The notes beneath the pieces were generated by a model. The model had not been told where the DNA came from, did no database searches, and saw nothing but the letters and a program-made list of their open reading frames with translations. A stretch of DNA of 64,000 bases from Nitrosococcus watsonii C-113 (GTDB taxonomy: Bacteria > Pseudomonadota > Gammaproteobacteria > Nitrosococcales > Nitrosococcaceae): positions 2,572,001 through 2,636,000 of the forward strand of contig NC_014315.1 of NCBI RefSeq assembly GCF_000143085.1, read 5' to 3'. Shown piece by piece: positions 1-20,153 of the stretch; the first letter of the stretch is position 1; the number at the start of each line of letters is the position of its first letter. The translations under genes and the position numbers were made by a program.

Positions 1-1063
1 TCCACTCCTGACCCCCCTGAATAGGCAAGTCGATAAAAGATTCCGTTCCGGGACCCGACCAGCGAAAAGTTGAATTATCGGCTGGCGCCCGCTCCCGCCT
101 ATGCCATCCAGACCCTAATAAAGGCTCTTGGAGGGAAAGATAAAGACTTTCCTGGGCTAAAGGTCGCGCTTCCAGATGATGCCGATAATGACGGTCGAGA
201 AGCTGGTTGACCAGAGCCGGATTTTTGGCAAACGTTCCAGGAACCACTTCCCCTGGCCGGGCGTAACGCATCAAATCCCCCAACATGTCCGCCACGCGAT
301 CCTGGAAAAGACGCTCCGCCTCTTGGTACAGGGCCATATCCAATTTATTACAATTGAGCACCTTCTCCCGCACCTCTTCCGGCAAATCATCACTATTTGA
401 CCCGCCCGGCGCTACCCGCAGCTTTTGAACCTGCCCCACGGGCGGCCAGCCAAACGTCCAGCTTAGCAGCGCCATGGATTCATCAAAGCGCTCGGCCAAA
501 CCCAACCAGGCGCAGGCATGGAGCATCCTTTTAGCCCGTTCCAAACGCTGCTCAGCGGATAGGGAAACTTCATGCTCCAGCACCCATTTATCTACCGCGG
601 ACCGGGACTCGGCGGATAAAAAAATTGGGCCTGTATCGGGATCGTGCCGGAGATCAAAGGAAAGATGGCGGACTTGCATATCGCTGACCTTTTTCCTTGT
701 TTCCGGGGAATCGAGAAAGTCGGAAAAAGACATAGCGCGCTCTTTTACTAAATGATGAACCCGGGTGCCCGACTCCCGTAAAATAAACCGATAGGTGGAA
801 AGCGTAAGCGACAGGGGGTGGCGCAGCATGGTGAGATAAAGGGGCGGTTCCGGTAAAAATGGTTGCAAACCGCCGGCACCAAAATGGCCCCGGAAAAACC
901 GGTACTGAGGAAGCGACTCTTGGGGCAAGGTAACCAGCTCGCGCCATAATTGCGCAGGGCAAATATCATTGGCGTCAAAGCGGGCATCCAGCAGCGGGAT
1001 CAGGGTCGTTCCCGCCGTTTTTGGAATATGGATGAAATAGAAACGGTCGCTGAAATTCAGCAT
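1..1063 (-). CDS. Sulfotransferase family protein, C-terminus cut by window edge
   Basis: The frame is open without a stop from the ATG at 1063 to the window edge (about 354 codons visible). The N-terminus carries the 5'-phosphosulfate-binding loop of the sulfotransferase-2 type (FIHIPKTAGTT, residues 10-20), followed by RGHFGA and TMLRHP motifs. It closely resembles the gene at 15481-16965 along its length. After about residue 310 a second domain starts with GSGWH and RWSGPG motifs, shared with 15481-16965 and 4153-5445. By family it transfers sulfate from PAPS to a carbohydrate or similar acceptor; the acceptor is unknown. It is the first of seven sulfotransferase genes in the first 17 kb. 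Confidence 0.85.
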   Translation of the reverse strand, partial: MLNFSDRFYFIHIPKTAGTTLIPLLDARFDANDICPAQLWRELVTLPQESLPQYRFFRGHFGAGGLQPFLPEPPLYLTMLRHPLSLTLSTYRFILRESGTRVHHLVKERAMSFSDFLDSPETRKKVSDMQVRHLSFDLRHDPDTGPIFLSAESRSAVDKWVLEHEVSLSAEQRLERAKRMLHACAWLGLAERFDESMALLSWTFGWPPVGQVQKLRVAPGGSNSDDLPEEVREKVLNCNKLDMALYQEAERLFQDRVADMLGDLMRYARPGEVVPGTFAKNPALVNQLLDRHYRHHLEARPLAQESLYLSLQEPLLGSGWHRRERAPADNSTFRWSGPGTESFIDLPIQGGQEW

Positions 1064-1102
1064 AATCCGGGAATATATTTCTAATAAATGTCAGCTTTTA
1101 CA

Positions 1103-2038
1103 CTAACGCTGTAACAAAAGATTAGTAAAGCCGCAGGACAAAAGCTGTTGGCGGTTGATGGGATGAACGCCGCTGTTTGCAAGGTTAAAGATATTAAAGC
1201 CAAACCCTTCCACCATATCAATAAAACTGTCCAGCGGCATGCGGTTTTTAAAGCGGTCAGGCGAATATTCAATAATCACTTTGATATTTCTGGAGCGATG
1301 GATAAGTTGGGACATGCCCTTCAGGCCCAGGGGCTCCGAACCTTCAATATCCATTTTCACCACATCGGCGGTAAAATCGGAACCCAAAAATTCATCAAGG
1401 GTAACCACGGGAACGGTAATTTCATCCATGCCTTTGTTTTTAGACTGCTTTTCCGATACAAAAAACGACCCTCCCCCCATTTGATTGGGAGGAAAACGAA
1501 GCACCATTTCTCCTGCCCGATCCATGACGCCCTTATTGAACAATTGCGCTTTGCCATTGCGGAACATTCCATTCGCTATGAAACTTCTTTCAACCAAGGC
1601 GCACAGCCTTGGGTTTGCCTCGAAGGCCATGATTTTGCCCCGTTCTCCCACGAGAGGCGCGGCAATCACCGAAAAATAGCCCAGATTCGCGCCAATATCG
1701 AGCACCGTATCCCCTTTTTTTATCAAGCTAGTAAACGTCCTGGTAATATGGGGCTCCCATCTCCCCGTGCTGATGATATGAGGCGCGATACTGATGTCAT
1801 CAGTAAACACATACAGTTTCGAGCCATTGGCAAGGAAAGTCAGCGCGGTATGGTCGCCAAGGTAAAAGGTGCGGGTGTCGAGCAGCTTTCTTACCTCTTC
1901 TCGCAGCTGCTTGTTTTCCTCTAAAAGCTGATTAAGCTTGCCTTCGATGGAGTAAGTATCGGTAGGCATTTTAGTCCGCACGTGATTCCATAGCTGCAAT
2001 ATTTTCTTGGTTAATCGTTCCACGCTGATATCCTGCAT
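1103..2038 (-). CDS. FkbM family methyltransferase
   Basis: A 311-aa SAM-dependent methyltransferase of the FkbM type. Motif I reads [13 protein letters not shown] near residue 114, and the later KMDIEGSE motif is characteristic of FkbM proteins, which usually O-methylate sugars or other polar acceptors. The N-terminal 60 residues include a short charged helix ([16 protein letters not shown]) that may be a coiled coil. The start overlaps the stop of the upstream FG-GAP gene by one base (TAATG), indicating translational coupling. In this cluster a role in methylating the surface glycan is inferred. Confidence 0.85.
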
Positions 2039-4122
2039 TAGGGAGAGGAAATTTTGAGAAGCTGATTCGCCTTAAGATTGGAGTGGGTCGTCACCTTCCC
2101 ATCTGGCCAGTAGATCGTTGCCTGCTTGGCTTGTGGAGATTTTCCCAGGCCAAAGTAAAGACGGTAATGCCCCTGGGAAAAGTGCGCGCCCTCCGAGACT
2201 CCCACCTCGCGCACCTGAACGCCCTCATCCGTTGAAAGCTCCACCCGGGCGCCAATGGCGTTCCGGTTACCCGCTGGACCCACCAGTTCAAGCTGTAACC
2301 AATGATTTGCGGGCGGCTGGCCTTGGTAGAGCCGGGTACGGTACCAACGCCACATGGGCCGCAAGGGCCAGGCTACATCCTTGCGCGCTAGCCGCCATTC
2401 TTGAAGCGTTTGGCCCTGTTCCTCCGCCTGCTGCCGCCGCCATTCCTGCAGGATTTTGAAATAGCCTTCCGCAGGGAAAATACCCAACGTCATCAACACA
2501 TCCCAGGCCCCGTCATTATCAGCATCGAACCAAGAGCTTACGCCATTTCTCGCCCTCTGGGCCAGCTTCCAGCCGGTCCATTCCCTAGCGCGTTGAAAGC
2601 GCCCGTTTTCGGTTTGATAAAAAATGCCAACGGGCAAGCAATGAAAATCCAGCTTGCCATCCAGATCCACATCAACCCAGCTTGCCGACAGACAGCCCCT
2701 GGGAAGCCCCCATTGCTCCATATCCCGGGGCTCCAGCTTGCCCCTATTGTTCACCAACAAGAAACTCTCATGGCGGTATTTTTTACGGGCCGTGACGACA
2801 TAGACATCCTGATCCCCATCGGAGTCAAAATCCCCCAGAGCAAACTGCATCACGCTGCCTGTAAACGGCCGGGAAATAAGTTGCCGTTTAAACGTCACCT
2901 TATCGTTGATAAAGACCGCAAGCCAACTATTGCTATCAGTATATAAACCAAAATTAGGATCTTGATGGCTACCGTCGCCATTGAGATCGGCCAACAAATC
3001 CATATCGCCATCCTGATCCACATCAAACCAGACGAATTGAGCGCCGGGCCTGGTCGCCAGGCCATACTTTCTAGCAACCTCTTTGAACCGTCCCGTTGAG
3101 TCCTGCGAATAAAACTGATTGGGACCGCCCAGGCAACCCACATAGAGTTCCAGGCGATTATCCCCATTAATATCCACCCAGGCGGGCCTATAGGTTCGGC
3201 AGTTTTTTTTCTGAATGCCCCGCTCGATGGCGACATCCCGGTAGCGGCCGCCGCCGTCGCTGAGCAGGAGTTCATCGGAAGCGATGTGGGGCTGCTGGAA
3301 GCGATCGAGGGCGGCCCGCAGACCGCCGGTGGACATAAAGGCATCCAGCCACCCGTCGCCATTCAACTCTGCCCAGGCTACCCCATGCCGATCACGCCAG
3401 CTTAGGACAAAATGATGTTCCTTGGGATGGAGGGCATGCTGCCCCACCTTCACCTTGTTTAAGGGCAGGGATGAATCCAGCGTCACCTCGAAGGGCAAGG
3501 CAATGTAAAGGGTATCAAGCACCAACGTACCTTGGGGAGCGATAGAAAATTGGACCTTGGTCCAAGTCTCGCCAGCTTCCGAAGCCAAATTGGTGATATC
3601 CGCGCTAGCGTGCTCAGCCCAGTAAATCTGGATCGGCGAGGGCTCGCCGGTGGGAGAAGGCACCAGAATGCGGCCGGAAACCGTTCCCGCCTCGCCTAAT
3701 TCATGGGCTCTAAAAATTAATAACCGCCGCCGCCGATGAATGTAGAGGCCGGGTTCCTTCAATGCGGGATCGGCGTCCATATCCTCCAGGTAGGGAAACG
3801 CTCTTGCCTGATCCAGACCCAAGCGAGTCAGGGCATCGGTATAATTTCCCTTGCCATCGCCCAACAGCAAATTCTCGCGGGTATAATGGCCGGTTGTATA
3901 AATATCGAGGATATCATCGCCATTGATATCGGCCACGCCCACATCGAAAACATCGTGGGGAGAGGCCAGTTTAATTTTTTGATAAGACTTAACCGCAAAG
4001 GACTTTTCCGCAACCGGCTCTTTCGACTTAACGGGAATTGGTTGGCTATTTTCCTTGGCAAAAAGAATTAGACTAAAAAATAAGCCGCTCATAAGAGACG
4101 CTGTTATAAAAGATTTTATCAT
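2038..4122 (-). CDS. FG-GAP/VCBS repeat protein with ASPIC/UnbV C-terminus
   Basis: A 694-aa exported protein with an N-terminal hydrophobic signal segment ([17 protein letters not shown]). It has many calcium-binding-like repeats of the form DxNGDxxxD (for example [30 protein letters not shown]), as in FG-GAP/VCBS beta-propellers. The last 80 residues match the ASPIC/UnbV domain ([25 protein letters not shown]). Such proteins (CRTAC1-like) are extracellular and probably bind carbohydrates or partner proteins; no enzymatic activity is evident. It lies in the same direction as the FkbM and sulfotransferase genes and is translationally coupled to FkbM. Confidence 0.85.
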
Positions 4123-4152
4123 TTTCTAAATTGTTAGCCTCAATATCCTCTG

Positions 4153-5445: not shown

Positions 5446-5489
5446 GGCGGTAATACTATTTCTTAAATCTCAATAATTTTTTTAATGAC

Positions 5490-7178
5490 TTAACTTTCGC
5501 ATCCGCTGAGACGCTCCATGGCTATCCCCTTTACTTCCATGGAACGCCATATGGAAAGATAAAATAAAGTTTCTTTTAGACCTATCTCTTGGGGATAGAA
5601 CCAAATTTCATAGCCTTCTTGGCTCTCTACCTTCACAACCTTAGAAGGTTTGCCAAAAAATTTTTGAAGAGCCACGGGAGGAATACGGTGCTTTGATTTT
5701 TGGGCGATGATAATGAACGAAAAAAAACGGAGAGCAGGGCAACCACTATCCCAATTCCAGAAACCATAAGCATTATTCCTCCATAACCAGGGTCTGGCGT
5801 CATCCGCAATAGCTCCCACATAGAAGGGCGTGCGGAGTGTTACCGGATAGGCTATCTGATAGGGGGCCAAACCACTGTTGCCAATTTCACCTTGGGAATG
5901 CAGTTCAGTCAGGGTATTGGTAAGCACAGTGAATGCCGGTGGCTTCGATTGCATCGCGATCGCTTTGGGAAACAATAATAATACCGCTACGGCAGCAACG
6001 CTTCCAATGAACAATCCTCTAAACCGCGGTGGGCCCGTTTCCAAACGCTCGAGAAAAACGGTATGGTTGCTTGCAATCACTAGCACCGCAATGAAGAAAA
6101 TATAAAAATAATAGTGGGAAGCAAGCTTGCCGGTAACCATCATAGTCGTGGGAAGCAAGAAAACCGTGACCAAAAATAACACCGCCATGAAAAAATCTAT
6201 AGGCTGTTCCCCTTTCTTATCATCCGATCGCCTGCTTGGCCACAACGTAGCTAAACACAACAGCACGGCAAACACCTGGACAGCAAGCAAACTCAATGAA
6301 CCGGGATGCATGTACACTTGCCTCAGCGTATAAAATCGGTCGATTACTTCTTCCATGGAGCCGGGAAATTGTTCCAGAAAGTTATCACCGCGATGAATAG
6401 CTACGAAGGGCAAAAATTCCACAATAATATTCGCCGCGCCAGCAATGCCCAAGGAAAGGCCCAGTATCATGCCGCAGAGAATAAAGATCTGTATATTGCC
6501 TTTTCGCAGCAGTGCAAGGATAAGCCATGTCATGAATAAAGGCCCACAGACCCACGCCAGGAAAATGAGATCAGCATGGATAGCCAGCCCAAAAACCATT
6601 GAAAACCCCACTATACCCATTTCCCTAGCAGCGCGATCATCCAACCGCGCACAGATAAGCGGAGCGGCATAGAAGAGCATGGCCAAGGGCAACAACCCGT
6701 TATGCTGGGCAGGGGCTAGCCATTGCTGGGCAAAAAAAGGACTCATTGCTGCGCAGAGCAAACAGCCCAGCATAAAAGCGCAGGCGATGGGGCGTCTCCT
6801 GGATTCAGCGCTCCCATAGGCCCATAGCCATACAAGGGTCGCGCCATACAGCAATCCCAGATTTAATAATGAAAACAGAATTCCCCATTTAGCAAGATCC
6901 CCAAAAGCCAGCAAATAGGCAATGGTGGAGATAATGAGATCCGGAAAATAGCGTGGTGCTTCTTGCCAGCTCCAAGCAATTGGAATGCCATCAAAAATTG
7001 CTTGAATGATATCCTGCGTATAGCGAAATGTGCCTAAGGCATCAACATCCATCCCGTTTATATTATTCACGCTGTACGCTGCAAACAGGGCCGGCAACAC
7101 CCATGCCCAGGACAACATTGCCTGCCTGGCGGGGGCATATTGGTTATAAATACTCCCTATCCTTCGATTGAATATCAT
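5490..7178 (-). CDS. Polytopic inner-membrane protein, possibly glycan related
   Basis: A 562-aa protein with about ten to twelve hydrophobic segments spread over residues 20-400 and a soluble C-terminal tail of about 160 residues. I do not recognise a specific family. The topology, a large first periplasmic loop with several acidic residues and a soluble C-terminal part, resembles GT-C glycosyltransferases or polymerase-like membrane proteins of polysaccharide clusters, but no diagnostic motif is visible. It sits between a sulfotransferase and a glycosyltransferase, so a role in assembling or modifying the exported glycan is plausible only by context. Confidence 0.65.
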   Translation of the reverse strand: MIFNRRIGSIYNQYAPARQAMLSWAWVLPALFAAYSVNNINGMDVDALGTFRYTQDIIQAIFDGIPIAWSWQEAPRYFPDLIISTIAYLLAFGDLAKWGILFSLLNLGLLYGATLVWLWAYGSAESRRRPIACAFMLGCLLCAAMSPFFAQQWLAPAQHNGLLPLAMLFYAAPLICARLDDRAAREMGIVGFSMVFGLAIHADLIFLAWVCGPLFMTWLILALLRKGNIQIFILCGMILGLSLGIAGAANIIVEFLPFVAIHRGDNFLEQFPGSMEEVIDRFYTLRQVYMHPGSLSLLAVQVFAVLLCLATLWPSRRSDDKKGEQPIDFFMAVLFLVTVFLLPTTMMVTGKLASHYYFYIFFIAVLVIASNHTVFLERLETGPPRFRGLFIGSVAAVAVLLLFPKAIAMQSKPPAFTVLTNTLTELHSQGEIGNSGLAPYQIAYPVTLRTPFYVGAIADDARPWLWRNNAYGFWNWDSGCPALRFFSFIIIAQKSKHRIPPVALQKFFGKPSKVVKVESQEGYEIWFYPQEIGLKETLFYLSIWRSMEVKGIAMERLSGCES

Positions 7179-7269
7179 TAGAACTTACTTTGGCAATAGG
7201 CGCTTAAAAGGGGCGGGATAATAACTCAAGATACTGGGCATTTCCCGCCATGTTTTTTACCAAGGCTGT

Positions 7270-8376
7270 TTACCCACCATTCTTTTGTCTCCGGCTAAGA
7301 TTTTCCCTAACGCAAGTAGCTAATTCAAGATAGTCTTGCCGGGTCAACGCCCAATCAAATCGCTTTGCTTCCGCCTGGGTACTCGCCGCTAGGGCAGACA
7401 ACCTGACTGGATCGCTGAGTTCCTCGATACATTCCTGCAAATGTCCTTCGTCAGGCTCGAAAATAGGAAGGCCACAACGATTCTTGCGCTTGGAGAAACT
7501 ACGCGCCAGCAAGCCACTTCGCCCATGGCGGATCACTTCATTGATGGGGGCGATATCATTGGAAATCACTGGCATCCCATAGGCCAGGGCCTCGAACAAA
7601 TGGACCCCTAGCCCTTCCCAACGGCTCGGGCAAAGACAAACGTGACAACTTGAAAACAACCGCCGGTGTTCCTCGAAGGGTAAATCCGCCACTATATGGG
7701 TCATTCTGGGATCATCTTCGATGATCACGGGCTCGGAGGCTTTATCAATGCACTGGCTCTTAATAATCAACCTAATATGGGGGTTCTTTACCTGCTTGAA
7801 CGCCCTGAGGGTAGCCTGGATGGGCTTGCGGGTTCCCTGGGTACCCCCGTGGAAGAAAAAATAAAGGGCATCGGTGCGCTTAGTAGGAGAGAAGGCCGTC
7901 AACGAGGGCGCCAAGCCAAACCGGACATAGGGGGAGGCAATTCCCACTTTTCGGTAGTTCTCCTGCTCGCAGCGGGTCAAAGAATAGACAATATCATAGG
8001 CTTGTTTGACCGTCGCCACGTAATCCGGATGGAAAGCCTCCCACACGAAGCGCCCGATGGTCCGTACCCCCAACCTTCGAATAGCAGCAATGGCCTCGAA
8101 TTGCATATTCATATCGCAAAAAAGCACATCCAGGGTGGACTGCTTGGCCCAAGCTACATATTCTTCGAGGGGCATATCATAAGCCGAACCGTGAGTAAGA
8201 CGAGGCACTTGCCACTCCTCCCGGCTATCAATAAGATTGGACATGGCCGCCCTGGTCCGCGTGGGCCGGGCCAGTACGTAAGTATCATGTCCCGCCTCAG
8301 CGAAAATGCTCCGAATCTGGCGGGTCACGATCCCTTGCCCGCGATTGCACCAGTTACTGATAAAGCCGATATTCAT
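7270..8376 (-). CDS. Glycosyltransferase, GT4-like (group 1)
   Basis: A 368-aa protein with the GT-B fold pattern. The N-terminus contains ISNWCNRGQGIVTRQI, as in nucleotide-sugar-dependent glycosyltransferases. The C-terminal domain has a group-1 signature around CPSRWEGLGVHLFEALAYGMPVI and an EVIRHGRSGLL segment, where the conserved Glu binds the donor sugar nucleotide. It is predicted to transfer a sugar onto a growing glycan at the cytoplasmic face. The stop codon of the upstream sulfotransferase is only 6 bp away, so the two are probably one transcription unit. Confidence 0.85.
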   Translation of the reverse strand: MNIGFISNWCNRGQGIVTRQIRSIFAEAGHDTYVLARPTRTRAAMSNLIDSREEWQVPRLTHGSAYDMPLEEYVAWAKQSTLDVLFCDMNMQFEAIAAIRRLGVRTIGRFVWEAFHPDYVATVKQAYDIVYSLTRCEQENYRKVGIASPYVRFGLAPSLTAFSPTKRTDALYFFFHGGTQGTRKPIQATLRAFKQVKNPHIRLIIKSQCIDKASEPVIIEDDPRMTHIVADLPFEEHRRLFSSCHVCLCPSRWEGLGVHLFEALAYGMPVISNDIAPINEVIRHGRSGLLARSFSKRKNRCGLPIFEPDEGHLQECIEELSDPVRLSALAASTQAEAKRFDWALTRQDYLELATCVRENLSRRQKNGG

Positions 8377-8382
8377 TGAAAG

Positions 8383-9404: not shown

Positions 9405-9415
9405 AATAGGCTTAC

Positions 9416-10807
9416 TTACCATTCGGCTTTCCGCATCCTGCCAGCATCTACATACTTTTCCCAGGTGGTAAGCTCGTGCTGTAAACTTTTTAACTTCTCC
9501 GGATAAATCCCGGCAAGGTTATGTTGCTCTGAAAGATCACTATCAAGAGAATACAAGGCTATGCTCGCCGGCCTTTCTTTCTTGGCAGGCCGCATGAGCA
9601 TTTTCCAAGGCCCCTTACGAACCGCTTTTTTACCCTTGCTGCGCCAAAAAACTGTTCTTTCCGAAAGCTTGCCGCCTTCACAAAGCAGCGGCAATAAATT
9701 AACGCCATCGATTTTCTTTTCAGGCAACGACGCGCCCGCCATTGCCGCCATGGTAGGAAATAAATCCATGCTCATTGCAATCTCGTCAATCACCACATTT
9801 GGCTGGATTTTTCCGCGCCAGCAGGCAATGAAAGGCACCCTATGCCCACCTTCCCATAGCGCTCCCTTTTTCCCTCTCAATGGACCCGCGGAACCAATGG
9901 CGGGGCCATTATCGGACGTAAATGCCACCAAAGTCTTGTCTTCTATCCCTAGCGATTTTATCGTCTTAATCACCTCACCAACGCTCCAGTCGATTTCTTC
10001 AATGGCGGCGGAGTACAGGAATTTCCTGGATTTTTTATCCTCTCCCTGGATGGCGGCTAGTTGTTCCTTGGAAAATCGTTGCGCGAATCTCTTAGAAACA
10101 TGCACCGGCTGATGGGGCATCGGATGAGGCATATAAAGCAGAAAGGGGTTGCTTTTATGCTTGCTAATAAATTGGACGGCTTCTTCAGTACAATACTGCG
10201 TCATGTCATCTAGATCGGGATTTAGCTCGATAATCTCCTCGTTCCTCATCAAGGGAAGAGGCGGAAACGACTTGCGCCAAGGGTGCATATCATGGCTGTA
10301 AGGAATCCCAAAATACTCATCAAAACCCTGTCGAGAAGGCGAAAAAGAGGGACGATCCCCTAAATGCCATTTACCTATCAGCGCCGTGCTATAACCCACC
10401 GCTTTTAACGCTTCTGCGAAAGTGATCTCTGCCAGCGGCATCGCCTTGGCCATGGCATAGCGTTGATCCTTTGGAATAATTTGAAGGCCCACTCTTTGCT
10501 GATAGCAGCCGGTCAAAAGCGCGGCCCGGGTGGGCGTGCATAACGGACCATTGCTATGAAAATCCGTAAATCGCGCCCCCCTTTTCGCCAAAGCATCAAG
10601 ATTGGGAGTTTTTATATGCTGATTTCCATAACATCCCACATCTCCATAACCCATATCATCAGCGACGATCAAGACAATATTAGGCCGCCCCCTCTCTCTT
10701 TCAGCAACTAAGGATAGGCTATCAATAGGCCAGGATAGAGCCATCGAGGCACCCGCAAAACCAAGCGTTTTTAAAAAATGACGCCTCGTATAGGTGTATT
10801 CGTTCAA
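9416..10807 (-). CDS. Sulfatase with Tat-type signal peptide
   Basis: A 463-aa arylsulfatase-family protein. The N-terminus has a twin-arginine motif (TRRHFLK) before a hydrophobic stretch, so it is probably exported folded. The metal-binding start of the fold (NIVLIVADDMGYGDVG) is followed by the sulfatase signature CTPTRAALLTG, whose Cys would become formylglycine. GKWHLG and TSDNGP are further family motifs. The predicted start is a TTG at 10807: an in-frame stop lies directly upstream and no ATG precedes the Tat motif. It hydrolyses sulfate esters and could remodel or recycle the sulfated glycan this cluster appears to make. Confidence 0.88.
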   Translation of the reverse strand: MNEYTYTRRHFLKTLGFAGASMALSWPIDSLSLVAERERGRPNIVLIVADDMGYGDVGCYGNQHIKTPNLDALAKRGARFTDFHSNGPLCTPTRAALLTGCYQQRVGLQIIPKDQRYAMAKAMPLAEITFAEALKAVGYSTALIGKWHLGDRPSFSPSRQGFDEYFGIPYSHDMHPWRKSFPPLPLMRNEEIIELNPDLDDMTQYCTEEAVQFISKHKSNPFLLYMPHPMPHQPVHVSKRFAQRFSKEQLAAIQGEDKKSRKFLYSAAIEEIDWSVGEVIKTIKSLGIEDKTLVAFTSDNGPAIGSAGPLRGKKGALWEGGHRVPFIACWRGKIQPNVVIDEIAMSMDLFPTMAAMAGASLPEKKIDGVNLLPLLCEGGKLSERTVFWRSKGKKAVRKGPWKMLMRPAKKERPASIALYSLDSDLSEQHNLAGIYPEKLKSLQHELTTWEKYVDAGRMRKAEW

Positions 10808-10973
10808 ATTTTATTACTCATTAAACCGGTTATATGCAGAAAAATATTATAAGCTTAGAAAACTCCCGTAGGTTAAGTATACTTTAAAGGGTGTTTACCC
10901 CGCTCGATAAAAAGGAGGGGGCCAGATTTCCTTGTAATCGCAACGCAGACCCCTTACGCCTATTCGCTACTTC

Positions 10974-11975: not shown

Positions 11976-11978
11976 CGT

Positions 11979-12956
11979 ATGGAAAGCACAGCCCCTTCTC
12001 TTCTCCCTAACCACCCGTTAGGACAAGAGGATCAACAGGATAAGGATTCTCCCATCCCCTTATTCATTGTGGGACTGCAAAAATCCGGCACTTCCCTGCT
12101 AAGCCGTTGCCTGCAAATGGATGCCGCGGTCAGCAGTCCCTTTAAGGCTGAGGGCCACGATTTTTGGGGGGATGTCCCGCCCTTTACCCCAACCGCCTAT
12201 CCCACGGGAACGCTTTACCAGGCCAAGGGGGGAAAACAAGGGCATCTGCTTGAGGCATCCGATATTGATACCACCATAACTGCCACGGTCCATGGCCGCT
12301 GGCATAGTCTTCCCTGCCTTACTCCCATTCTTCTCAATAAAAACCCTTATAACACCCTCCGCCTGGGGTGGCTACGGGCGCTATTCCCGCAAGCCCGAAT
12401 CGTAGCCATGGTCCGGAACCCGCTAGCCAATACCTACTCCCTGGCCAAAAAATACCTGCCCCACCAGGGGCGGGGAAAGGCGCCTGAAGAGGGTTGGTGG
12501 GGGGTCAAGCCTCCCCAGTGGCGAGAGATCATCCAAGAGGACAAACTTGAGCAATGCGCCCGTCAATGGCTGACCGTCAACCAGCATTTGCTAGCAAATG
12601 CCTGGCACGTGGATTTATACTTGACCTATGAAGCTTTCTGTCAACAACCCCGTCTCTGGCTGCAACGGATTCTACAACTTTGCCAACCCCACCGTGTCGA
12701 TCCACCGCCTATCGTGCTCCCCTTGCAAAACTGTGACGGGGAATATCTTACTGGCGCTCGCCTCCGCTCAAACAACCGCTATTTCCATGAGCGGGGCAAT
12801 CTTTCCCTGCCAGCCCACACGGTTACGGAGTTTCCACCACTAACAGCGGAGCAAACCCGCCGTATTGAAAAGCTGGCCTGGCCCCTATGGCAAGCATTCA
12901 GGGAAATCCAGAAAAGCAAAATGCCGCCGGAAGCAATTAAAAAGCATACCCCCTAA
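11979..12956 (+). CDS. Sulfotransferase family protein
   Basis: A 325-aa protein with the PAPS-binding loop FIVGLQKSGTSLLSR near residue 30 and the 3'-phosphate-binding segment ARIVAMVRNPLANTYSLAK near residue 140. The first 25 residues are low-complexity and probably disordered. It follows the glycosyltransferase-like gene by 3 bp. Its 3' end overlaps the convergent sulfotransferase gene at 12937 by 20 bp. Confidence 0.85.
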   Translation: MESTAPSLLPNHPLGQEDQQDKDSPIPLFIVGLQKSGTSLLSRCLQMDAAVSSPFKAEGHDFWGDVPPFTPTAYPTGTLYQAKGGKQGHLLEASDIDTTITATVHGRWHSLPCLTPILLNKNPYNTLRLGWLRALFPQARIVAMVRNPLANTYSLAKKYLPHQGRGKAPEEGWWGVKPPQWREIIQEDKLEQCARQWLTVNQHLLANAWHVDLYLTYEAFCQQPRLWLQRILQLCQPHRVDPPPIVLPLQNCDGEYLTGARLRSNNRYFHERGNLSLPAHTVTEFPPLTAEQTRRIEKLAWPLWQAFREIQKSKMPPEAIKKHTP

Positions 12957-13755: not shown

Positions 13756-13833
13756 GAGTATACTATAAAATATATCCTTATTACTTGCAGGGATAAATAT
13801 TAACTTAAAGAACTCGATAATAAAGTACAAGCC

Positions 13834-14544
13834 ATGAAACTAATTATTTGGGGCGCTGCCCTTTATGGACTACTGCTTCCCGCGTCCGGTTTTGCTGCCT
13901 GCGCGGGGGGCACCACTGCTGCCTGGGAAACGGAAGATCCCGGCAACCATTTACTCGTCAACGCAATGGCGGCCATGAGAGGCAGCGACTGCGGTCTTGA
14001 GATCCAACTGGGCGGGACCGAGGGTCCTAACGGCAAACGCTATGTCCAGGACTCCACGCCCAACCAGGAAACCCGTTATCGGGCCCGATTTTATTTTGAT
14101 CCCAGTGGGGTTGGCATCGCCTCGGATGGTTCCGAAAAATTAAAATTTTTTAATCAACAGCAGCTTAGCCAGTCCTCTCTCCCCATCGGCGTGGCCCAAA
14201 TGAAGCTGAAAGGCACATCTTCAGGTTATGCCATTCGCGCCTGGGCGCGATGGACACGGCCAGACAGTAGCGACGGCAAAAGACGGGTGACCCTGCCTCT
14301 TGAAAACGGCCCTAACATCATTGAAATTGAGCTGATTATCGGGAATGGCAATGGCGCTTACCGAATCTGGATTAATAAGTCTAATGAAGCCAACCCGGAT
14401 TTTGAAGCTACCCATCTCAATAACGCCACCTATGGGGGTATTGATCGAATCCGACTCGGGTATCTGGGGGGTAATTTTACCCCGGCTGGAAGCCTCTTCA
14501 TTGATGAATTCGTATCTACCCGCTCCAGCTTCATTGGTCCCTGA
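13834..14544 (+). CDS. Secreted protein, possibly lectin-like beta-sandwich
   Basis: A 236-aa protein with a clear signal peptide (hydrophobic core then ASGFAA, cleavage probably near residue 22). The mature part is rich in beta-type sequence and aromatic residues (YRARFYFDPSG, YAIRAWARWT, YRIWINKS, GGIDRIRLGYLGG). This resembles the concanavalin-A-like fold of secreted carbohydrate-associated proteins, but I do not recognise a family. Two Cys near the mature N-terminus and one at about residue 50 could form a disulfide. An inverted-repeat element follows its stop. Confidence 0.65.
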   Translation: MKLIIWGAALYGLLLPASGFAACAGGTTAAWETEDPGNHLLVNAMAAMRGSDCGLEIQLGGTEGPNGKRYVQDSTPNQETRYRARFYFDPSGVGIASDGSEKLKFFNQQQLSQSSLPIGVAQMKLKGTSSGYAIRAWARWTRPDSSDGKRRVTLPLENGPNIIEIELIIGNGNGAYRIWINKSNEANPDFEATHLNNATYGGIDRIRLGYLGGNFTPAGSLFIDEFVSTRSSFIGP

Positions 14545-14557
14545 CCACGTATTCGTC

Positions 14558-14649
14558 GAGCAAGGTAAGGCGGGAAAGCGCAGCGCATCCCGCCGAAGTC
14601 GCTTCCATTCATAGGGGGCTCCACTTTCCCGCCCTACGTATGCTTGCTC
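14558..14649. repeat. Nested inverted repeat, possible REP/MITE-like element
   Basis: Between the convergent genes 13834-14544 and 14663-15478 lie two nested inverted repeats. The outer arms are GAGCAAGG..GGCGGGAAAG at 14558-14578 and its imperfect complement CTTTCCCGCC..CTTGCTC at 14624-14649. An inner hairpin pairs GGCGGGA (14569-14575) with TCCCGCC (14588-14594). The same left arm can pair with either partner, giving alternative folds. It may act as a bidirectional terminator or be a small non-autonomous repeat. Confidence 0.55.
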
Positions 14650-14662
14650 TATCGGTTCTAAT

Positions 14663-15478
14663 TTAAGGGATTTTTTGATACCCCCAATAGCGGCAATAGT
14701 CCGCCATTAGTTCAAAAACCTGTTCTGCTTCTCCCACTAAGGTGGCATTGGTTTCCACCTGCCATCGGCGGACACGCTGAGTGGTAATCCGCTTGCCATG
14801 AAGCTGGTATTCCCGTCTACCTCCTGCCGCTCCATTACCTAAAAACTCACCAATATTCCCTATCCCCTGCAAAGGACACTTCACAAAGCGCTTGATTTTT
14901 TCAAAAGCTTGAGAATCCTGGCATAAATCTTCATAGCGAACAGATAGACAGTCTATTGTCGTCGCTATTTCTAGTTGTCTTTGAAACTCAGCATTTAAAT
15001 CCGCCGCTACTAATGCTGGATTATAGGGCCCCCGCCATCGCCCATACCCCTCTTTCTGGCGGTAAAAAAGGGAGATATAAATATCCCGCGGGTCCCGACC
15101 CATAAGAATGACCTTCATCCCAGGAAATCGCTGATAATAGCACCGCCAGTTTTTGTGCCTTATTTCCTTGACCCCCCATTGCTGCATGGGTGGAAAGAGC
15201 TTGGGCAACAACTCTTCTTGCAGGGCAGTGAGAATAGGACGCTCAGTTCTGTTCTCTAACCACTGCTCCCGCAGCTGATCTAAATCAACCCCAAACGGTC
15301 TCAGCCTGTCGGCATCCCCTAATTTTAAGGAAAATTTATTACGGCTAAAATGAGGTTCTCGAAAGATAAATGAATGGGGCAAGGCAGTAAGCGCCTCGCT
15401 CAGCATGGTTGAACCGGTTCGCCGCAAAGCGGCAATATAAATAAAGGGTCGGGGAAAACCCACAGAAGAAGCAACCAT
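14663..15478 (-). CDS. Sulfotransferase family protein
   Basis: A 271-aa protein starting at the ATG two bases after the stop of the upstream sulfotransferase (MVASSVGFPRPF). The frame is open much further back, but that part is out-of-frame overlap with the neighbour. The PAPS loop is IAALRRTGSTMLSEAL near residue 17, and VILMGRDPRDIYISLFYR is the second conserved motif. YEDLCQD fits the third. It is probably translated as an operon with 15481-16965. Confidence 0.85.
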   Translation of the reverse strand: MVASSVGFPRPFIYIAALRRTGSTMLSEALTALPHSFIFREPHFSRNKFSLKLGDADRLRPFGVDLDQLREQWLENRTERPILTALQEELLPKLFPPMQQWGVKEIRHKNWRCYYQRFPGMKVILMGRDPRDIYISLFYRQKEGYGRWRGPYNPALVAADLNAEFQRQLEIATTIDCLSVRYEDLCQDSQAFEKIKRFVKCPLQGIGNIGEFLGNGAAGGRREYQLHGKRITTQRVRRWQVETNATLVGEAEQVFELMADYCRYWGYQKIP

Positions 15479-15480
15479 AG

Positions 15481-16965
15481 CTATGAAAAATAGGCAGCGC
15501 GCAGGTAAAGATAAAATTTTCTTAGCCGAGGGCCAAACCAAGGAATTTGCAGTGGCCAGAGCCGCCATGAAATAGGGCGGCGGAGCTTCTTTAACCGAGC
15601 TATGAGAACCTCCTCCGGCAGGGCTTCCCGGGCAGGAACGAGCTCCACCCCACCGATGGCGACGCCTACCATGCGCATATCCCAGTAATAGCGTTCCCGG
15701 CGCACCGTCTTGGCGACCCGAAAGGCCAGCTGGATATGCCTGGCTCTGGAGGTGAAAATATGCCGGGAAATAAAGGCCCGATAGTAACGGGGGCACGAAC
15801 CGCGACCGAAGGAACGAAGCGCCACCGGCTGGCCGTTGACGGTTAATTGCAGACTTTCCAGTATCGTCGGAGAAGCTGCATCCAGCACCAGAAAAGTCAC
15901 TACGAAATCTTCCGCAACGCCCAAGGGGAACGCCAGGGTAGACACCCTGCCGGGGCCAGTCCAACGATAGAATATTCCCTTGGAGGACGCCTTCTCCCGG
16001 CCGTGCCAACCACTTCCCGACAGGGGCTCGGCAAAGGTCATACGAATAGGCGCGCCTGCCGGGCGGGTTTGCTTTGGCCGCTGATATCGGTAATGGCGTT
16101 TCAGTAGCTTATGGAGCAATAGGGGATTGGCAATCAAGGGGTCCGGCACTACCTCCCCCGCTCTTGCGTATTGCCGTAGATCCTCTCTCATAGCAGCTAG
16201 CCGCTCCTCAAACCGCTTTTCCGCCGCTTCATAGAGCGCCAAGTCCAACAAATTATAAGCGCAAATCTGCGCTTCCAAGGCGGAAGAAAGAGCCGCTCCC
16301 TGGCGAGAAGCCGAAGGCGCTACCATTAATTTTTGCACGGGCCCCACCGGCGGCCAGCCAAAAGTCCAGGATAAAAGGGCCATGGACTCATCGAAACGCT
16401 CTACCAAACCAAAGAAAACGCACTCCTGAAGTACGGCAAAAGCCCGCTCAAGCCGCTCTTGCGGAGATCGATAGACCACCTTGTGGCTATTTACCCACCG
16501 CTTGGCGCCGCGGGCGGCAGAAAGTACCGATCCCCTGCCTGGCTGGTAATGCAGCTCGAAACCCAGGTTGTTCACTTGCTTATTAGTCACCGCCAGGCGG
16601 GCTTTGGGGTGCCGTAAAAATTCAGCAAAGCTCATTTTTCTGGATTTTACCAGACGGTGTCCCTGAGTCCCCGGTTCCCGCAAAATAAATTGATAGGTGG
16701 AGAAAGCCAAGGGCACGGGATGGCGCAGCATGGTTATCCGTAGTGGTGGCTGCGGTAAAAAACAATCCAGCCCCTTAGCCCCAAAATGTCCTCGGAACAG
16801 GCGGTAGCGGGGTAATGTCTCCTGGGGAAGCAACAAGAGCTGGGGCCAAAGTTGCGCCGGACAGATTTCATCCACATGAAAGCGAGCGTCCAGATGGGGA
16901 ATCAGGGTAGTCCCGGCGGTTTTAGGAATATGAATGAAATACAAGCGGTCTTGAGGCTGCAACAT
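15481..16965 (-). CDS. Sulfotransferase family protein with extra C-terminal domain
   Basis: A 494-aa protein, a close paralogue of the partial gene at 1-1063. The N-terminal sulfotransferase-2 domain has FIHIPKTAGTT (residues 10-20), RGHFGAKG and TMLRHPVPLAFSTY. The C-terminal domain from about residue 310 contains SGSGWHGRE and YRWTGPGRVSTL, shared with two other sulfotransferases here. The final 40 residues are basic and end with a short aromatic segment. It starts a run of minus-strand genes ending in the sulfotransferase at 14663. Confidence 0.87.
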   Translation of the reverse strand: MLQPQDRLYFIHIPKTAGTTLIPHLDARFHVDEICPAQLWPQLLLLPQETLPRYRLFRGHFGAKGLDCFLPQPPLRITMLRHPVPLAFSTYQFILREPGTQGHRLVKSRKMSFAEFLRHPKARLAVTNKQVNNLGFELHYQPGRGSVLSAARGAKRWVNSHKVVYRSPQERLERAFAVLQECVFFGLVERFDESMALLSWTFGWPPVGPVQKLMVAPSASRQGAALSSALEAQICAYNLLDLALYEAAEKRFEERLAAMREDLRQYARAGEVVPDPLIANPLLLHKLLKRHYRYQRPKQTRPAGAPIRMTFAEPLSGSGWHGREKASSKGIFYRWTGPGRVSTLAFPLGVAEDFVVTFLVLDAASPTILESLQLTVNGQPVALRSFGRGSCPRYYRAFISRHIFTSRARHIQLAFRVAKTVRRERYYWDMRMVGVAIGGVELVPAREALPEEVLIARLKKLRRPISWRLWPLQIPWFGPRLRKFYLYLRAAYFS

Positions 16966-17000
16966 CTCTGGCGCCTATTGCTCTGCTCGCTGGAGAGATC

Positions 17001-18287
17001 TCAGGCCAGGATCTGGCCGTAGGCCGCGGAGAGACGATCGGCATAACGTTCCGGGCTGAAATACTCAACCCGGCGATAACCCGCTTCAATCAAGCGCGCC
17101 CTTAAACAAACATCTTCCTGGAGCGACTCAATATGAGCAAAAAGCCCATCTGAGTCATAGGGATCCATATAAAGGGCAGCCTCACCACATACTTCCGGCA
17201 ATGAACTAGCATTGGAGGTAATGACTGGGCAGCCATGGCTCATGGCTTCCAAGGCAGGGAGCCCGAAACCTTCATAGAGAGAAGGGAAGGCCATGCAGAG
17301 AGCGTGGCTATAAAGGGTGCTCAAAACAGCAGAAGGCACATAGTCCAGTATTCGCAGGCGCTTGGACTCATCCTCGCCAAAGTAGCGCTTGGCCATCTGG
17401 AGTGGTTCTTCCCAAAGCCATGCCTTGCGGCCTACCACTACTAGAGGGAGATCATGCTGGAGCATGCTCATAGCCTTGATCAAAGTCGCCAGATTTTTTT
17501 TGGGCTCAATATTCCCTACGAATAGCACATATTGGCCCGGCGTCAACCCGTAATTCTTTAGGACAGAAAAAGACTGCCTTTTATGGGTGTTGGCCCTCTT
17601 CAAGGATAAGGACTGGTAGGTCACTACAACTCGCTCTTCAGGAATATCATAAAAAGCGAGAATATCCCTTTTCGAGCATTCGGAAACGGTAAGTACCAGA
17701 TCTGAATCCCGCAGTGCATCCCGCACCAACCGGTAGAAAAATTGTTTGTTATCCAAAGTAGTATAGGGCAGACGCAGGGGAATCAAATCATGGATAGTGG
17801 TAACCATCCGGGCCCCCCGAATACGAATAGGCACGGGCGTAGTGGCATGCCAAAGGGCAGGTGGCCGCGGAAATTTAACCCGGGTCAACCTGCCCAACCG
17901 CAAATAGGTCTGGTTGGCCATATCATAAAGCTGAGGCAAATTATAGCAACGATGGATAGCAGCCCCGCCCGAGTCTTCCATGGGAATAACCCGGGAAATA
18001 TCCACTGGCATTGCCCGTAGGGTGCGGCCTGCATGGGAGAGCATCCGCCATCCTCGCCAAAGTCGGGGATGGCGGGGAGCATGGTCCATGGCCTGATCAA
18101 ACAGATGTACCTCGGACAGAACTGGATACCGGCTTTTAGGCACATGCCGATCCGTCAGCAAGGAAACCTGAGCCTGGCACTGGCTCAAGGCATTGAGCAA
18201 GGAAAGCCCATAGGTCTTAATCCCAGAACCCTGGGGCAACCGAAGGTTATAGGTATCTACCAAAATTTCGTGAGTGGCCAAATTCAT
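17001..18287 (-). CDS. Glycosyltransferase family 4-type protein
   Basis: A 428-aa GT-B glycosyltransferase. The C-terminal Rossmann domain contains VLFVGNIEPKKNLATLIKA, then FPSLYEGFGLPALEAMSHG, the donor-nucleotide EX7E region typical of GT4 mannosyl- or related transferases. The N-terminal part has the GSGIKTYGLSLLNAL glycine loop. It lies directly downstream of the exporter ATPase (15 bp gap), as in ABC-transporter-dependent O-antigen and capsule operons, so it probably helps build the exported chain. Confidence 0.87.
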   Translation of the reverse strand: MNLATHEILVDTYNLRLPQGSGIKTYGLSLLNALSQCQAQVSLLTDRHVPKSRYPVLSEVHLFDQAMDHAPRHPRLWRGWRMLSHAGRTLRAMPVDISRVIPMEDSGGAAIHRCYNLPQLYDMANQTYLRLGRLTRVKFPRPPALWHATTPVPIRIRGARMVTTIHDLIPLRLPYTTLDNKQFFYRLVRDALRDSDLVLTVSECSKRDILAFYDIPEERVVVTYQSLSLKRANTHKRQSFSVLKNYGLTPGQYVLFVGNIEPKKNLATLIKAMSMLQHDLPLVVVGRKAWLWEEPLQMAKRYFGEDESKRLRILDYVPSAVLSTLYSHALCMAFPSLYEGFGLPALEAMSHGCPVITSNASSLPEVCGEAALYMDPYDSDGLFAHIESLQEDVCLRARLIEAGYRRVEYFSPERYADRLSAAYGQILA

Positions 18288-18302
18288 AAATCTGCTATAC
18301 GG

Positions 18303-19154
18303 TTATGATTCATCAAGATCAAGGATTTCCTCTCCCCCCATGGCTTTTTCGTAGGCATCTAGCACCTGGGGAGCCTCCCCAAACAGCCGGGTCCGGCCAT
18401 GGTCCAGCCACAGGCAATGGGTGCAAATTTGCCGTAGCAAGGCGCAAGAGTGGGAAACCACGATCAGCAGTTGGCTATGCTGAATCATCTCCATCATCCG
18501 GGCCCGGCTTTTGGCTTTAAAAACTAAATCCCCAGGCGCCAGAGACTCATCCAGGATCATGATTTTTGGGTCTAGGATAGAGGCCACGGAAAAGCCGAGC
18601 CTGGCCTTCATTCCCGCCGAGTAGCTGCGCATGGGCTGGTCGATAAAATTACCCAACTCTGAAAAAGCGATAATATCATCCAAACGGCGATCCACCACCC
18701 GGTGGGGAATGCCCAGAAAAGAGGCATAAAGATAGGCATTAGCCCGGCCTGACAACTCCCGGTTAAAGCCGGCGCCAAAATTCAGCAACGGCGTCACTTC
18801 GCCACGAACCTGGACTGTCCCGCTATCCGGCGTCAAGATACCGGCCAAAACCAAGCATAAAGTACTTTTACCCGCTCCATTGTGACCCACGATTCCTAAT
18901 GCCTCCCCCTCATGGCACTGGAAATTCACCCCGTTCAGTGCCCAATGAACCTGCGCCAATCCCTTGCGGGGAGACAGCAGAACTTCTTTAATCGAGCGAC
19001 GCTTATGCTGTTGCAGTTGGTACCAAAGTTTGAGATTACGAACCTCAATTAAGGGAGGGCTGGCCAGATTCAGTTGACTTGGCACTTTTCCCTGACTCCC
19101 GGTCAAGGTAGGATGGCCTCCGGCCATCGAGTGCTTGGCAGGCCGCTCACTCAC
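18303..19154 (-). CDS. Polysaccharide ABC exporter, ATP-binding subunit (Wzt/KpsT-like)
   Basis: A 283-aa ATPase. Walker A is GHNGAGKST (residues 90-98), the signature region is SYSAGMKARLGFSVAS, Walker B is IMILDESLAPGD, and the H-loop is VVSHS. The spacing and the segment LNFGAGFNRELSGRANAYLY are typical of polysaccharide exporters. There is no long C-terminal carbohydrate-binding domain of the Wzt type, so chain recognition may be of the KpsT kind. The start is a GTG that overlaps the permease stop by one base. Confidence 0.9.
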   Translation of the reverse strand: MSERPAKHSMAGGHPTLTGSQGKVPSQLNLASPPLIEVRNLKLWYQLQQHKRRSIKEVLLSPRKGLAQVHWALNGVNFQCHEGEALGIVGHNGAGKSTLCLVLAGILTPDSGTVQVRGEVTPLLNFGAGFNRELSGRANAYLYASFLGIPHRVVDRRLDDIIAFSELGNFIDQPMRSYSAGMKARLGFSVASILDPKIMILDESLAPGDLVFKAKSRARMMEMIQHSQLLIVVSHSCALLRQICTHCLWLDHGRTRLFGEAPQVLDAYEKAMGGEEILDLDES

Positions 19155-19999
19155 TAGAGAAATTTGATGACACGGCGGTCATAATAAAGATAAATACGAT
19201 ATCCCAAAAAGAGTAAAATTCCAGCCTCTAGGAGGAGTACAAGCCAAAAATAAAACGGCATGAGCTCTCCATAGAAAATACTGTCCCGGTAGCCACTAAT
19301 CAGGATAGCAAAGGGATTAAGCATGTAGAGGTTAAACAGCTTATTACCCCATTCGGAACCGAACTCGGCTGTCAAAAGGCGCTGGATAAGATCGATACCA
19401 TAAAGTCCTGGCGACAGGTAATAGGCCATTCTAAGAAAGTGGCTAATAAAGGGAGAAAGATCCCGGACCAAGGCACCTATACATGCCAGGGGCAAGGCAA
19501 TCCCAGTGACAATGAGCAACTGCAACGCCATCAAGCCCGGCAGTTGAAGCAGCGGCAGCAAGTCGCCGCTGTGTTGGACTAACGCGCCGGATAAAGCGGC
19601 GCCTAGGGCGAAAACCAGAAGCACTATCATGCCGAACAAAAAAAAACCAAAACTCGAAAACACGATGGCAATCGGCAAAATAATAGTAGGAAAGGGCACC
19701 GACTTAATAAGATGATCCTTGGCGCTGAGCACATTGGTAGCCTTGGCGGCGCTCTCCGCAAAATGCTTCCAGGCGATCAGGCCGCAGAAGAGGAAAATCC
19801 AGTAGGGCTCGTAACGGATATTTCCCCGGCCAAGGATGATCACCATCACTCCCCAATATACCCCCATCAACAGCAAAGGGTCCAGCAGCCACCATAACCA
19901 GCCCAACCGCATTTGGGCCGTGGAAGACTGCAGCTCACTCAGGGTGAGGGATTTAAGAAGATCCTGGCGGGCAATAATATTAGTTAAAGTCGAAAGCAT
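19154..19999 (-). CDS. Polysaccharide ABC exporter, permease subunit (Wzm/KpsM-like)
   Basis: An ABC-2 type permease of about 281 aa from the ATG at 19999; the frame is open to a TTG at 20041. About six hydrophobic segments are seen, with the conserved LGWLWWLLDPLLLM start and LNPFAILISGYRDSIFYG near the end, as in Wzm/KpsM/TagG. With the coupled ATPase it would export a lipid-linked polysaccharide across the inner membrane. It is the first gene of the exporter-glycosyltransferase operon. Confidence 0.9.
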   Translation of the reverse strand: MLSTLTNIIARQDLLKSLTLSELQSSTAQMRLGWLWWLLDPLLLMGVYWGVMVIILGRGNIRYEPYWIFLFCGLIAWKHFAESAAKATNVLSAKDHLIKSVPFPTIILPIAIVFSSFGFFLFGMIVLLVFALGAALSGALVQHSGDLLPLLQLPGLMALQLLIVTGIALPLACIGALVRDLSPFISHFLRMAYYLSPGLYGIDLIQRLLTAEFGSEWGNKLFNLYMLNPFAILISGYRDSIFYGELMPFYFWLVLLLEAGILLFLGYRIYLYYDRRVIKFL

Positions 20000-20153
20000 G
20001 ATGGTGATGGCGCACTGCCCCGATTTCCGTATGCCGACCAAAAAAAGACAGTATAATGGGGGAATATTCCCACAACATCAAGTCGTGTGGAACTTTAACC
20101 CGGCTAAATTAACCTATCAACAACTCGCAATCGAAGCCAAAAGCTTGTCATAT

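What the first reader, a model, noticed from the sequence alone, without database searches (positions are those of the whole stretch)
1..20041. Sulfated polysaccharide cluster with seven sulfotransferases, a sulfatase and an ABC exporter
Seven sulfotransferase-family genes (1, 4153, 8383, 11979, 12937, 14663, 15481) of at least three loop types (KTAGT, RRSGT/RRTGS, KSGTS) lie with a formylglycine sulfatase, FkbM methyltransferase, glycosyltransferases and Wzm/Wzt-like exporter. Sulfated exopolysaccharides are well known in algae and animals but few bacterial clusters carry so many sulfotransferases. The number suggests site-specific sulfation of one glycan. The cluster continues beyond the left edge.
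Basis: partly seen in the sequence, partly recalled or inferred. Interest (0 to 1): 0.72.

Follow-up and report, generated by a model that had tools for sequence, protein, structure and literature searches.

The report
Sulfated surface sugar cluster, marine nitrifier
This stretch of an ammonia-oxidising marine bacterium (Nitrosococcus watsonii or a very close relative) carries eight sulfate-attaching enzymes next to sugar-joining enzymes and an exporter, so the cell probably coats itself with a heavily sulfated polysaccharide; this is a known kind of bacterial gene cluster with an unusually large set of sulfate-attaching enzymes.

Summary
All seven genes named are sulfotransferases by profile or fold, and an eighth lies just beyond the left edge. 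Eight of the 13 sulfotransferase-family genes found in this genome lie within about 18.5 kb, among glycosyltransferases, an FkbM methyltransferase, a Tat-exported sulfatase (CTPTR motif) and a Wzm/Wzt-type ABC exporter. The cluster is syntenic in Nitrosococcus oceani ATCC 19707 (nine sulfotransferases), and every gene is under purifying selection. Two other Nitrosococcus genomes carry a different glycan cluster, with other sulfotransferases, at the same site.

The interpretation (a sulfated exported glycan) is well supported. The KTAGT enzymes have a heparan-sulfate 6-O/2-O-sulfotransferase fold plus a C-terminal domain resembling carbohydrate-binding modules. The genome has an APS kinase, and its CysH is of the APS-reductase type, so PAPS is probably reserved for sulfation.

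Two parts are weaker. 'One glycan, site-specific sulfation' is not shown, and the sulfatase has no recognisable maturase (FGE or anSME) in the genome. Marine Nitrospiraceae MAGs hold similar clusters (seven sulfotransferases with Wzm/Wzt), and sulfated, ABC-exported capsules are known in Vibrio and Cobetia. I call it a new member of a known kind.

The parts
1..1063 (-). KTAGT-type sulfotransferase, 461 aa in full (continues to C1:2571678, left of the window); HS6ST-like catalytic domain plus CBM-like C-terminal domain
   Evidence: PF06990 weak; 54% to the 15481 protein over the part in the window
1103..2038 (-). FkbM-family methyltransferase
   Evidence: PF05050 51.9 bits
2038..4122 (-). Secreted FG-GAP repeat protein with C-terminal ASPIC/UnbV domain; role in the cluster unknown
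   Evidence: PF13517, PF07593; N-terminal hydrophobic segment
4153..5445 (-). KTAGT-type sulfotransferase with CBM-like C-terminal domain
   Evidence: PF03567 27.2 bits; A2 profile to HS6ST/HS2ST
5490..7178 (-). Multi-pass membrane protein, 562 aa, about 9 TM segments; candidate GT-C glycosyltransferase (inferred)
   Evidence: no family hit; hydropathy
7270..8376 (-). GT4-type glycosyltransferase
   Evidence: PF13692 57.2 bits
8383..9285 (-). Sulfotransfer_3 enzyme (RRSGTT loop)
   Evidence: PF13469 67.9 bits; dN/dS 0.12
9416..10807 (-). S1-type sulfatase, Tat signal, CTPTR formylglycine motif
   Evidence: PF00884 208 bits; nearest solved: kappa-carrageenan sulfatases S1_16 and exo-4S, 2e-70; motif; Tat signal TIGR01409
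10974..11975 (+). Uncharacterised protein with DSD motif, probable glycosyltransferase (inferred)
   Evidence: no family hit; structure prediction failed, pLDDT 32
11979..12956 (+). Sulfotransfer_3 enzyme (QKSGTS loop)
   Evidence: PF13469 66.7 bits
12937..13830 (-). Sulfotransfer_3 enzyme with variant loop GHGHSGHS (start codon uncertain; GTG at 13755 possible)
   Evidence: PF13469 45.6 bits; starts
13834..14544 (+). Small secreted protein of unknown family
   Evidence: no hits; N-terminal hydrophobic segment; conserved in N. oceani, 78%
14663..15460 (-). Sulfotransfer_3 enzyme (RRTGST loop); likely start between 15460 and 15568
   Evidence: PF13469 42.0 bits; start candidates
15481..16965 (-). 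KTAGT-type sulfotransferase, residues 1-272 HS6ST/HS2ST fold, about 303-446 CBM-like beta-sandwich
   Evidence: AlphaFold2 pLDDT 82.9; Z 18.4 to 5t03 HS6ST
17001..18287 (-). GT4 glycosyltransferase; travels with the KTAGT sulfotransferase in other Gammaproteobacteria
   Evidence: PF00534 98.2 bits; synteny in L035, L036, L037, L070, L034
18303..19154 (-). Wzt/TagH-type ABC exporter ATPase (no Wzt_C domain)
   Evidence: PF00005; NF050108 199 bits, below its cut-off of 400; O-antigen and teichoic-acid exporter structures E~1e-50
19154..20041 (-). Wzm/TagG-type ABC exporter permease
   Evidence: NF050109 3.5e-9; TarG 1e-10 and Wzm structures; 5 hydrophobic segments

Best explanation
The region is a biosynthesis and export locus for a sulfated surface polysaccharide (O-antigen or capsule type). 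Cytosolic glycosyltransferases build the chain on a lipid carrier. The chain is decorated by an FkbM methyltransferase and by up to eight cytosolic PAPS-dependent sulfotransferases of several families. Three of these are HS6ST-like and carry a C-terminal CBM-like domain that probably holds the polymer. The finished sulfated chain is exported by the Wzm/Wzt pair. A Tat-exported S1 sulfatase may then trim some sulfates in the periplasm or recycle the polymer. Sulfate is activated by CysDN and CysC. Shown by sequence: gene identities, intact motifs, purifying selection, conserved synteny, PAPS pathway, predicted fold. Inferred: that the STs act on the exported glycan, the order of steps, the sulfatase's role, and the sugar composition.
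For: Profile identities. HS6ST/HS2ST fold, Z 17-18, with a CBM-like second domain, and PAPS-loop (K15 T16 G18 T19), 3'-phosphate (R81, S89) and His60 residues invariant in 20 homologues. Sulfotransferases show no export signal or convincing TM segment by hydropathy, as expected for PAPS use in the cytosol before ABC export. CysD/CysN present; CysH scores above the APS-reductase cut-off and below the PAPS-reductase cut-off, so CysC is free for sulfation; CysC sits beside ManC and a Wzx-like flippase. Tight operon Wzm-Wzt-GT-ST-ST with gaps of -1 to 35 bp. 82-91% DNA identity with N. oceani over most of the region and dN/dS 0.07-0.32. 11 of 62 loci holding KTAGT-ST relatives have a Wzm/Wzt pair within 10 kb. 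Sulfatase nearest to carrageenan sulfatases.
Against: No initiating transferase, polymerase, nucleotide-sugar genes or outer-membrane export genes (kpsD/kpsE/wza-like) were seen in the cluster. The middle genes lie on both strands, so it is not one operon. No FGE or anSME maturase was found for the sulfatase. No chemistry for N. watsonii surface glycans was found in the papers searched.
Confidence: 0.75

Rival explanations
1. The sulfotransferases are a shared toolbox: they sulfate several glycans of the cell (this locus, the second ABC-type locus near C1:931-941 kb, the Wzx locus near C1:675 kb), and the count of eight reflects several acceptors rather than one densely patterned polymer.
For: Other ST genes and a second Wzm homologue sit together elsewhere in the genome. 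CysC lies in a different glycan locus. Several loop types and three Pfam families are represented.
Against: Eight of 13 lie in one place with one exporter and are kept together in N. oceani.
Confidence: 0.3
2. The products are sulfated glycoproteins (for example of the outer wall layer), not a free polysaccharide: GT2/GT-C genes glycosylate secreted proteins, which the STs then modify.
For: A polyprenyl-phosphate GT2 (nearest NCBIfam model PpgS, below cut-off), a small membrane protein and a multi-TM protein flank the cluster; type II secretion genes adjoin; two secreted proteins lie inside it.
Against: STs show no export signal by hydropathy and PAPS is cytosolic; the ABC pair is of polysaccharide-export type; no oligosaccharyltransferase was seen.
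Confidence: 0.1
3. The enzymes sulfate a glycolipid or small molecule (as NodH and Stf0 do) and the exporter is unrelated.
For: PF13469 also covers NodH-type glycolipid enzymes (PMC11625862).
Against: HS6ST/HS2ST fold plus CBM-like domain; tight operon of exporter, GT and two STs; recurrent ST-Wzm/Wzt neighbourhood in other phyla.
Confidence: 0.08

Closest known systems
Sulfated capsule clusters of Vibrio sp. KMM 8419 and Cobetia marina KMM 1449 (PMC11641403, PMC11766843)
   Same: Marine Gammaproteobacteria; GTs, STs, PAPS genes and an ABC exporter; the sulfated product is structurally proven there
   Different: They have kps genes, and in Cobetia wcb lipid-carrier genes, with PAPS genes in the cluster. 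Vibrio has three ST genes over an 80-gene locus, one of them near O-antigen genes. Here eight STs lie in ~18.5 kb, no kps genes were seen and CysC is elsewhere
Synechan xss cluster, Synechocystis PCC 6803 (PMC8205485)
   Same: STs of different subfamilies among GTs; sulfated exopolysaccharide shown
   Different: Two STs, Wzx/Wzy export, cyanobacterium; eight GTs against about four or five here
Nitrospiraceae MAG loci L063, L057, L056
   Same: Five to seven STs of the same families beside Wzm/Wzt
   Different: Wzt has a Wzt_C domain (L063); KTAGT STs lack the CBM-like domain (~270-300 aa); gene order differs; no homologue of the cluster's sulfatase found
Animal heparan sulfate 6-O- and 2-O-sulfotransferases
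   Same: Fold of the catalytic domain, PAPS-binding residues, aligned His
   Different: Bacterial, predicted cytosolic, extra C-terminal CBM-like domain; acceptor unknown

Membership tests
PAPS-dependent sulfotransferases (PF00685/PF03567/PF13469 superfamily) | Profile match above curated cut-off | tested here: met
   Five of the seven in the window plus the eighth outside it; the 1-1063 and 15481 proteins only below cut-off, but they join through the HS6ST profile and fold
PAPS-dependent sulfotransferases (PF00685/PF03567/PF13469 superfamily) | Conserved 5'-phosphosulfate loop and 3'-phosphate Arg/Ser | tested here: met
   Invariant in 20 KTAGT homologues; loops read directly in the others. 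The 12937 protein has a variant GHGHSGHS loop, so it is less certain
HS6ST/HS2ST-like polysaccharide sulfotransferase | Fold of the catalytic domain | tested here: met
   Z 18.4 over 229 residues to 5t03, 17.3 to HS2ST, for the predicted model of the 15481 protein
HS6ST/HS2ST-like polysaccharide sulfotransferase | Sulfation of a polysaccharide acceptor | not testable with these tools
   Needs an enzyme assay
Wzm/Wzt (ABC-2) polysaccharide exporter | Adjacent permease and ATPase related to O-antigen/teichoic-acid exporters | tested here: met
   both below NCBIfam equivalog cut-offs, so exact substrate class is open
Wzm/Wzt (ABC-2) polysaccharide exporter | Wzt_C glycan-binding domain (optional subclass) | tested here: not met
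   ATPase is 283 aa with only PF00005 and AAA_29; contrast L063
Group 2/3 (Kps) capsule locus | KpsC/KpsS Kdo transferases and KpsD/KpsE in the locus | tested here: inconclusive
   None among the cluster ORFs scanned with Pfam; genome not searched for them
Formylglycine-dependent S1 sulfatase | PF00884 and C-x-P/S-x-R motif | tested here: met
   208 bits; CTPTR
Formylglycine-dependent S1 sulfatase | Maturase (FGE or anSME) in the genome | tested here: not met
   Only PF03781 protein is EgtB (587 bits, cut-off 360); no TIGR03942 match
Sulfated polysaccharide biosynthesis locus | PAPS supply | tested here: met
   CysD, CysN, CysC, APS-reductase-type CysH
Sulfated polysaccharide biosynthesis locus | Sulfate ester present in the product | not testable with these tools
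   Needs glycan chemistry

The most novel reading that the evidence does not exclude
Nitrifiers (Nitrosococcus, and separately marine Nitrospiraceae) make a densely and positionally patterned sulfated polymer, a bacterial counterpart of animal glycosaminoglycans. It would be written by a set of eight or nine dedicated sulfotransferases, including HS6ST-like enzymes with a built-in carbohydrate-binding module, and edited by a sulfatase matured by an unrecognised route.
Probability: 0.15. Interest if true: 0.75.

Novelty: new member of a known kind. Interest (0 to 1): 0.45.

Why it matters
Structurally proven bacterial sulfated polysaccharides are few, and a review counts six genera (PMC11625862). 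A marine ammonia oxidiser with eight clustered sulfotransferases is a strong candidate producer, and the enzymes are a source of cytosolic, HS6ST-like polysaccharide sulfotransferases with a CBM-like domain. If the glycan is confirmed, it bears on metal and salt binding, phage contact and aggregation of nitrifiers, and the eight-enzyme set makes it testable whether sulfotransferase number tracks the number of sulfation sites.

Tried and rejected
Structure prediction of the 10974 protein from two sequences failed (pLDDT 32), so its glycosyltransferase role is inferred from a DSD motif only. The 5490, 10974 and 13834 proteins gave no useful match to solved structures. The PF03781 hit looked like a sulfatase maturase but is EgtB, next to an EgtD-like gene. 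High Foldseek rows to diphtheria toxin and Cry toxins were rejected as spurious or shared beta-sandwich matches: TM about 0.1, or only the C-terminal domain. The idea that the total number of sulfotransferases is exceptional was rejected: 80 of 140 sampled class genomes have PF13469 genes at E <= 1e-6, and 17 of the other genomes have seven or more. It is the clustering with an exporter that stands out, and one search also shows tandem arrays (for example G158:C35, five in about 8 kb). Literature searches for Nitrosococcus polysaccharide sulfate found one paper that mentions a sulfotransferase in a strain-variable N. oceani glycan cluster (PMC7285500). A direct look-up of a remembered N. watsonii accession was not possible.
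Full report
Source. The window lies at C1:2572001-2636000 of a 3,373,286-base genome with plasmid-sized contigs of 39,105 and 5,611 bases. Its nearest relative, G002, carries a plasmid identical over 8 kb to N. oceani ATCC 19707 plasmid NC_007483.1, 40,420 bases. The genus has four species here, and G002 is about 82-91% identical to the window over most of this region. PMC7285500 gives 89.3% ANI between N. oceani and N. watsonii. I therefore take the source as Nitrosococcus watsonii, a marine ammonia oxidiser.

Observation. An eighth lies just outside the window (C1:2570514-2571563, PF13469 40.5 bits), followed by a GT4 and, further left, a polyprenyl-phosphate GT2 and a small membrane protein. 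The genome has five other sulfotransferase-family genes, so 8 of 13 sit in about 18.5 kb. One correction: the 14663 gene should start near 15460-15568, not 16009.

Architecture. The right end is a tight minus-strand run of Wzm, Wzt, GT4, KTAGT-ST and RRTGST-ST, with gaps of -1, 15, 35 and 20 bp. The left part is a minus-strand run: ST 8383, GT4, a nine-TM protein, KTAGT-ST, FG-GAP protein, FkbM, KTAGT-ST, then the eighth ST and a GT4 outside. The middle holds the sulfatase and a short stretch with genes on both strands. The boundaries are type II secretion genes on the left and a reprolysin-like protein on the right.

What the KTAGT enzymes are. With 20 homologues, the residues H12, K15, T16, G18, T19, H60, R81, P83 and S89 are invariant. 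The profile finds heparan sulfate 6-O-sulfotransferase at 2e-28 and HS2ST at 1e-6, where the RGHFG segment with His60 aligns to HGHVSY of HS2ST. From general knowledge the histidines there are the catalytic ones. The AlphaFold2 model (pLDDT 82.9) gives Z 18.4 to HS6ST over residues 1-272. A second domain at about 303-446 matches CBM-like beta-sandwiches (CBM6, 22, 29, 35) at Z 8-9.5. That Z is middling, so 'CBM-like' is a fold statement, not proof of sugar binding. Matches spanning both domains occur in several Gammaproteobacteria, in Planctomycetota MAGs and in MAGs labelled cyanobacterium and Nitrosopumilus.

Sulfate donor. CysD, CysN and CysH lie together. CysH scores 266.8 bits against the APS-reductase model (cut-off 235.3) and 158 against the PAPS-reductase model (cut-off 254). 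If it uses APS, PAPS is not needed for cysteine. The single APS kinase (C1:674778) sits between ManC and a Wzx-like flippase, which points to PAPS being made for sulfation. Some CysH enzymes accept both donors (general knowledge), so this is strong but not absolute.

Export. The ATPase is closest to Wzt/TarH/TagH structures (E about 1e-50) and the permease to TarG and Wzm. Both fall below NCBIfam equivalog cut-offs, so the class is clear and the substrate is not. Among 62 loci fetched for KTAGT-ST relatives, 11 carry a Wzm/Wzt pair within 10 kb, three of them related Nitrospiraceae loci. At one or two such pairs per genome (an assumption) I would expect fewer than one in the roughly 1 Mb examined.

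Sulfatase. It is an S1 sulfatase nearest to kappa-carrageenan sulfatases, with a Tat signal and CTPTR. No maturase was recognised: the only FGE-domain protein is EgtB, and no anSME was found. It is under purifying selection (dN/dS 0.17), so it is probably used. How it is activated is open.

Comparison in the genus. N. oceani has the same cluster with nine sulfotransferases: one extra KTAGT-like ST (805392-806363, PF03567 30.9 bits) and one ST fused to an N-terminal methyltransferase domain. All genes show dN/dS 0.07-0.32. In the two larger genomes (G001, G003; probably N. halophilus and N. wardiae) the same site, next to the same secretion and GT genes, holds a different set: a divergent Wzm/Wzt pair (about 29% and 47% identity), GT2s, methyltransferases and other sulfotransferase-family genes. 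This is the pattern of a surface-glycan locus that is swapped between lineages (inference). In N. oceani strains, PMC7285500 reports strain-variable glycan clusters, one with a sulfotransferase.

Outside the genus. A GT4 - KTAGT-ST - FRSGST-ST module like the Nitrosococcus genes occurs in Alcanivoracaceae and Lysobacterales MAGs (L035, L036, L037, L070). Marine Nitrospiraceae MAGs (L063, L057) have seven sulfotransferases with Wzm/Wzt; in L063 the Wzt has the Wzt_C domain. Their marine origin is inferred from the record names, not checked. So high-density sulfotransferase clusters with ABC export are not unique to this genome.

Against the literature. Sulfated capsules exported by ABC systems are proven in Vibrio sp. 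KMM 8419 (three ST genes) and Cobetia marina. Synechan uses two STs and Wzx/Wzy, and its authors knew of no other bacterial cluster with two sulfotransferases. The present locus fits the same kind with more enzymes; hence 'new member of a known kind'. The unusual points are the number, the CBM-like fusion and the missing maturase.

Limits. No glycan data exist here. The acceptor, the number of sites, and whether all eight act on one chain are unknown. The roles of the 5490, 10974, 13834 and 2038 proteins are inferred or unknown.

Noticed in passing
window 20883-22940 (end): Reprolysin-like secreted protease ends in LPDIIFADGFES, and the N. oceani orthologue has the same tail; possibly a C-terminal sorting signal, near type II secretion genes.
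   Followed up: partly
window 28978-30351 and 30559-31908: A response regulator is split in two ORFs (221 and 234 aa) while N. oceani has one 457-aa gene; the neighbouring histidine kinase is 449 aa against 555 aa in N. oceani. The two-component pair looks broken in this genome.
   Followed up: partly
window 25536-26762 and 27221-28375: Tandem paralogous secreted proteins (67% identical) with no Pfam hit for the first (the second was not scanned); both conserved in N. oceani.
   Followed up: partly
window 2038-4122 and 22952-24355: Two FG-GAP repeat proteins near the cluster; the first, inside it, also has an ASPIC/UnbV domain.
   Followed up: no
L096:13216-15909 (N. oceani): Orthologue of the 1-1063 sulfotransferase is fused to an N-terminal methyltransferase domain (897 aa).
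   Followed up: partly
C1:1126926-1127627 (L136): EgtB beside an EgtD-like gene: probable ergothioneine synthesis in this nitrifier.
   Followed up: partly
L130:11795-15718 (G001): 1307-aa protein with an N-terminal weak Sulfotransfer_3 match (below cut-off) and GT2 and GT4 domains, at the same genomic site; 1342 aa in G003.
   Followed up: partly
window 45275-46687: SbcC-like fragment overlapping a serine resolvase gene; looks like an insertion or remnant.
   Followed up: no
window 55279-60280: Genes resembling a type I restriction-modification system.
   Followed up: no
L008:2895-4001: TnpB-like gene left of the cluster, with no counterpart found in the N. oceani stretch compared.
   Followed up: no
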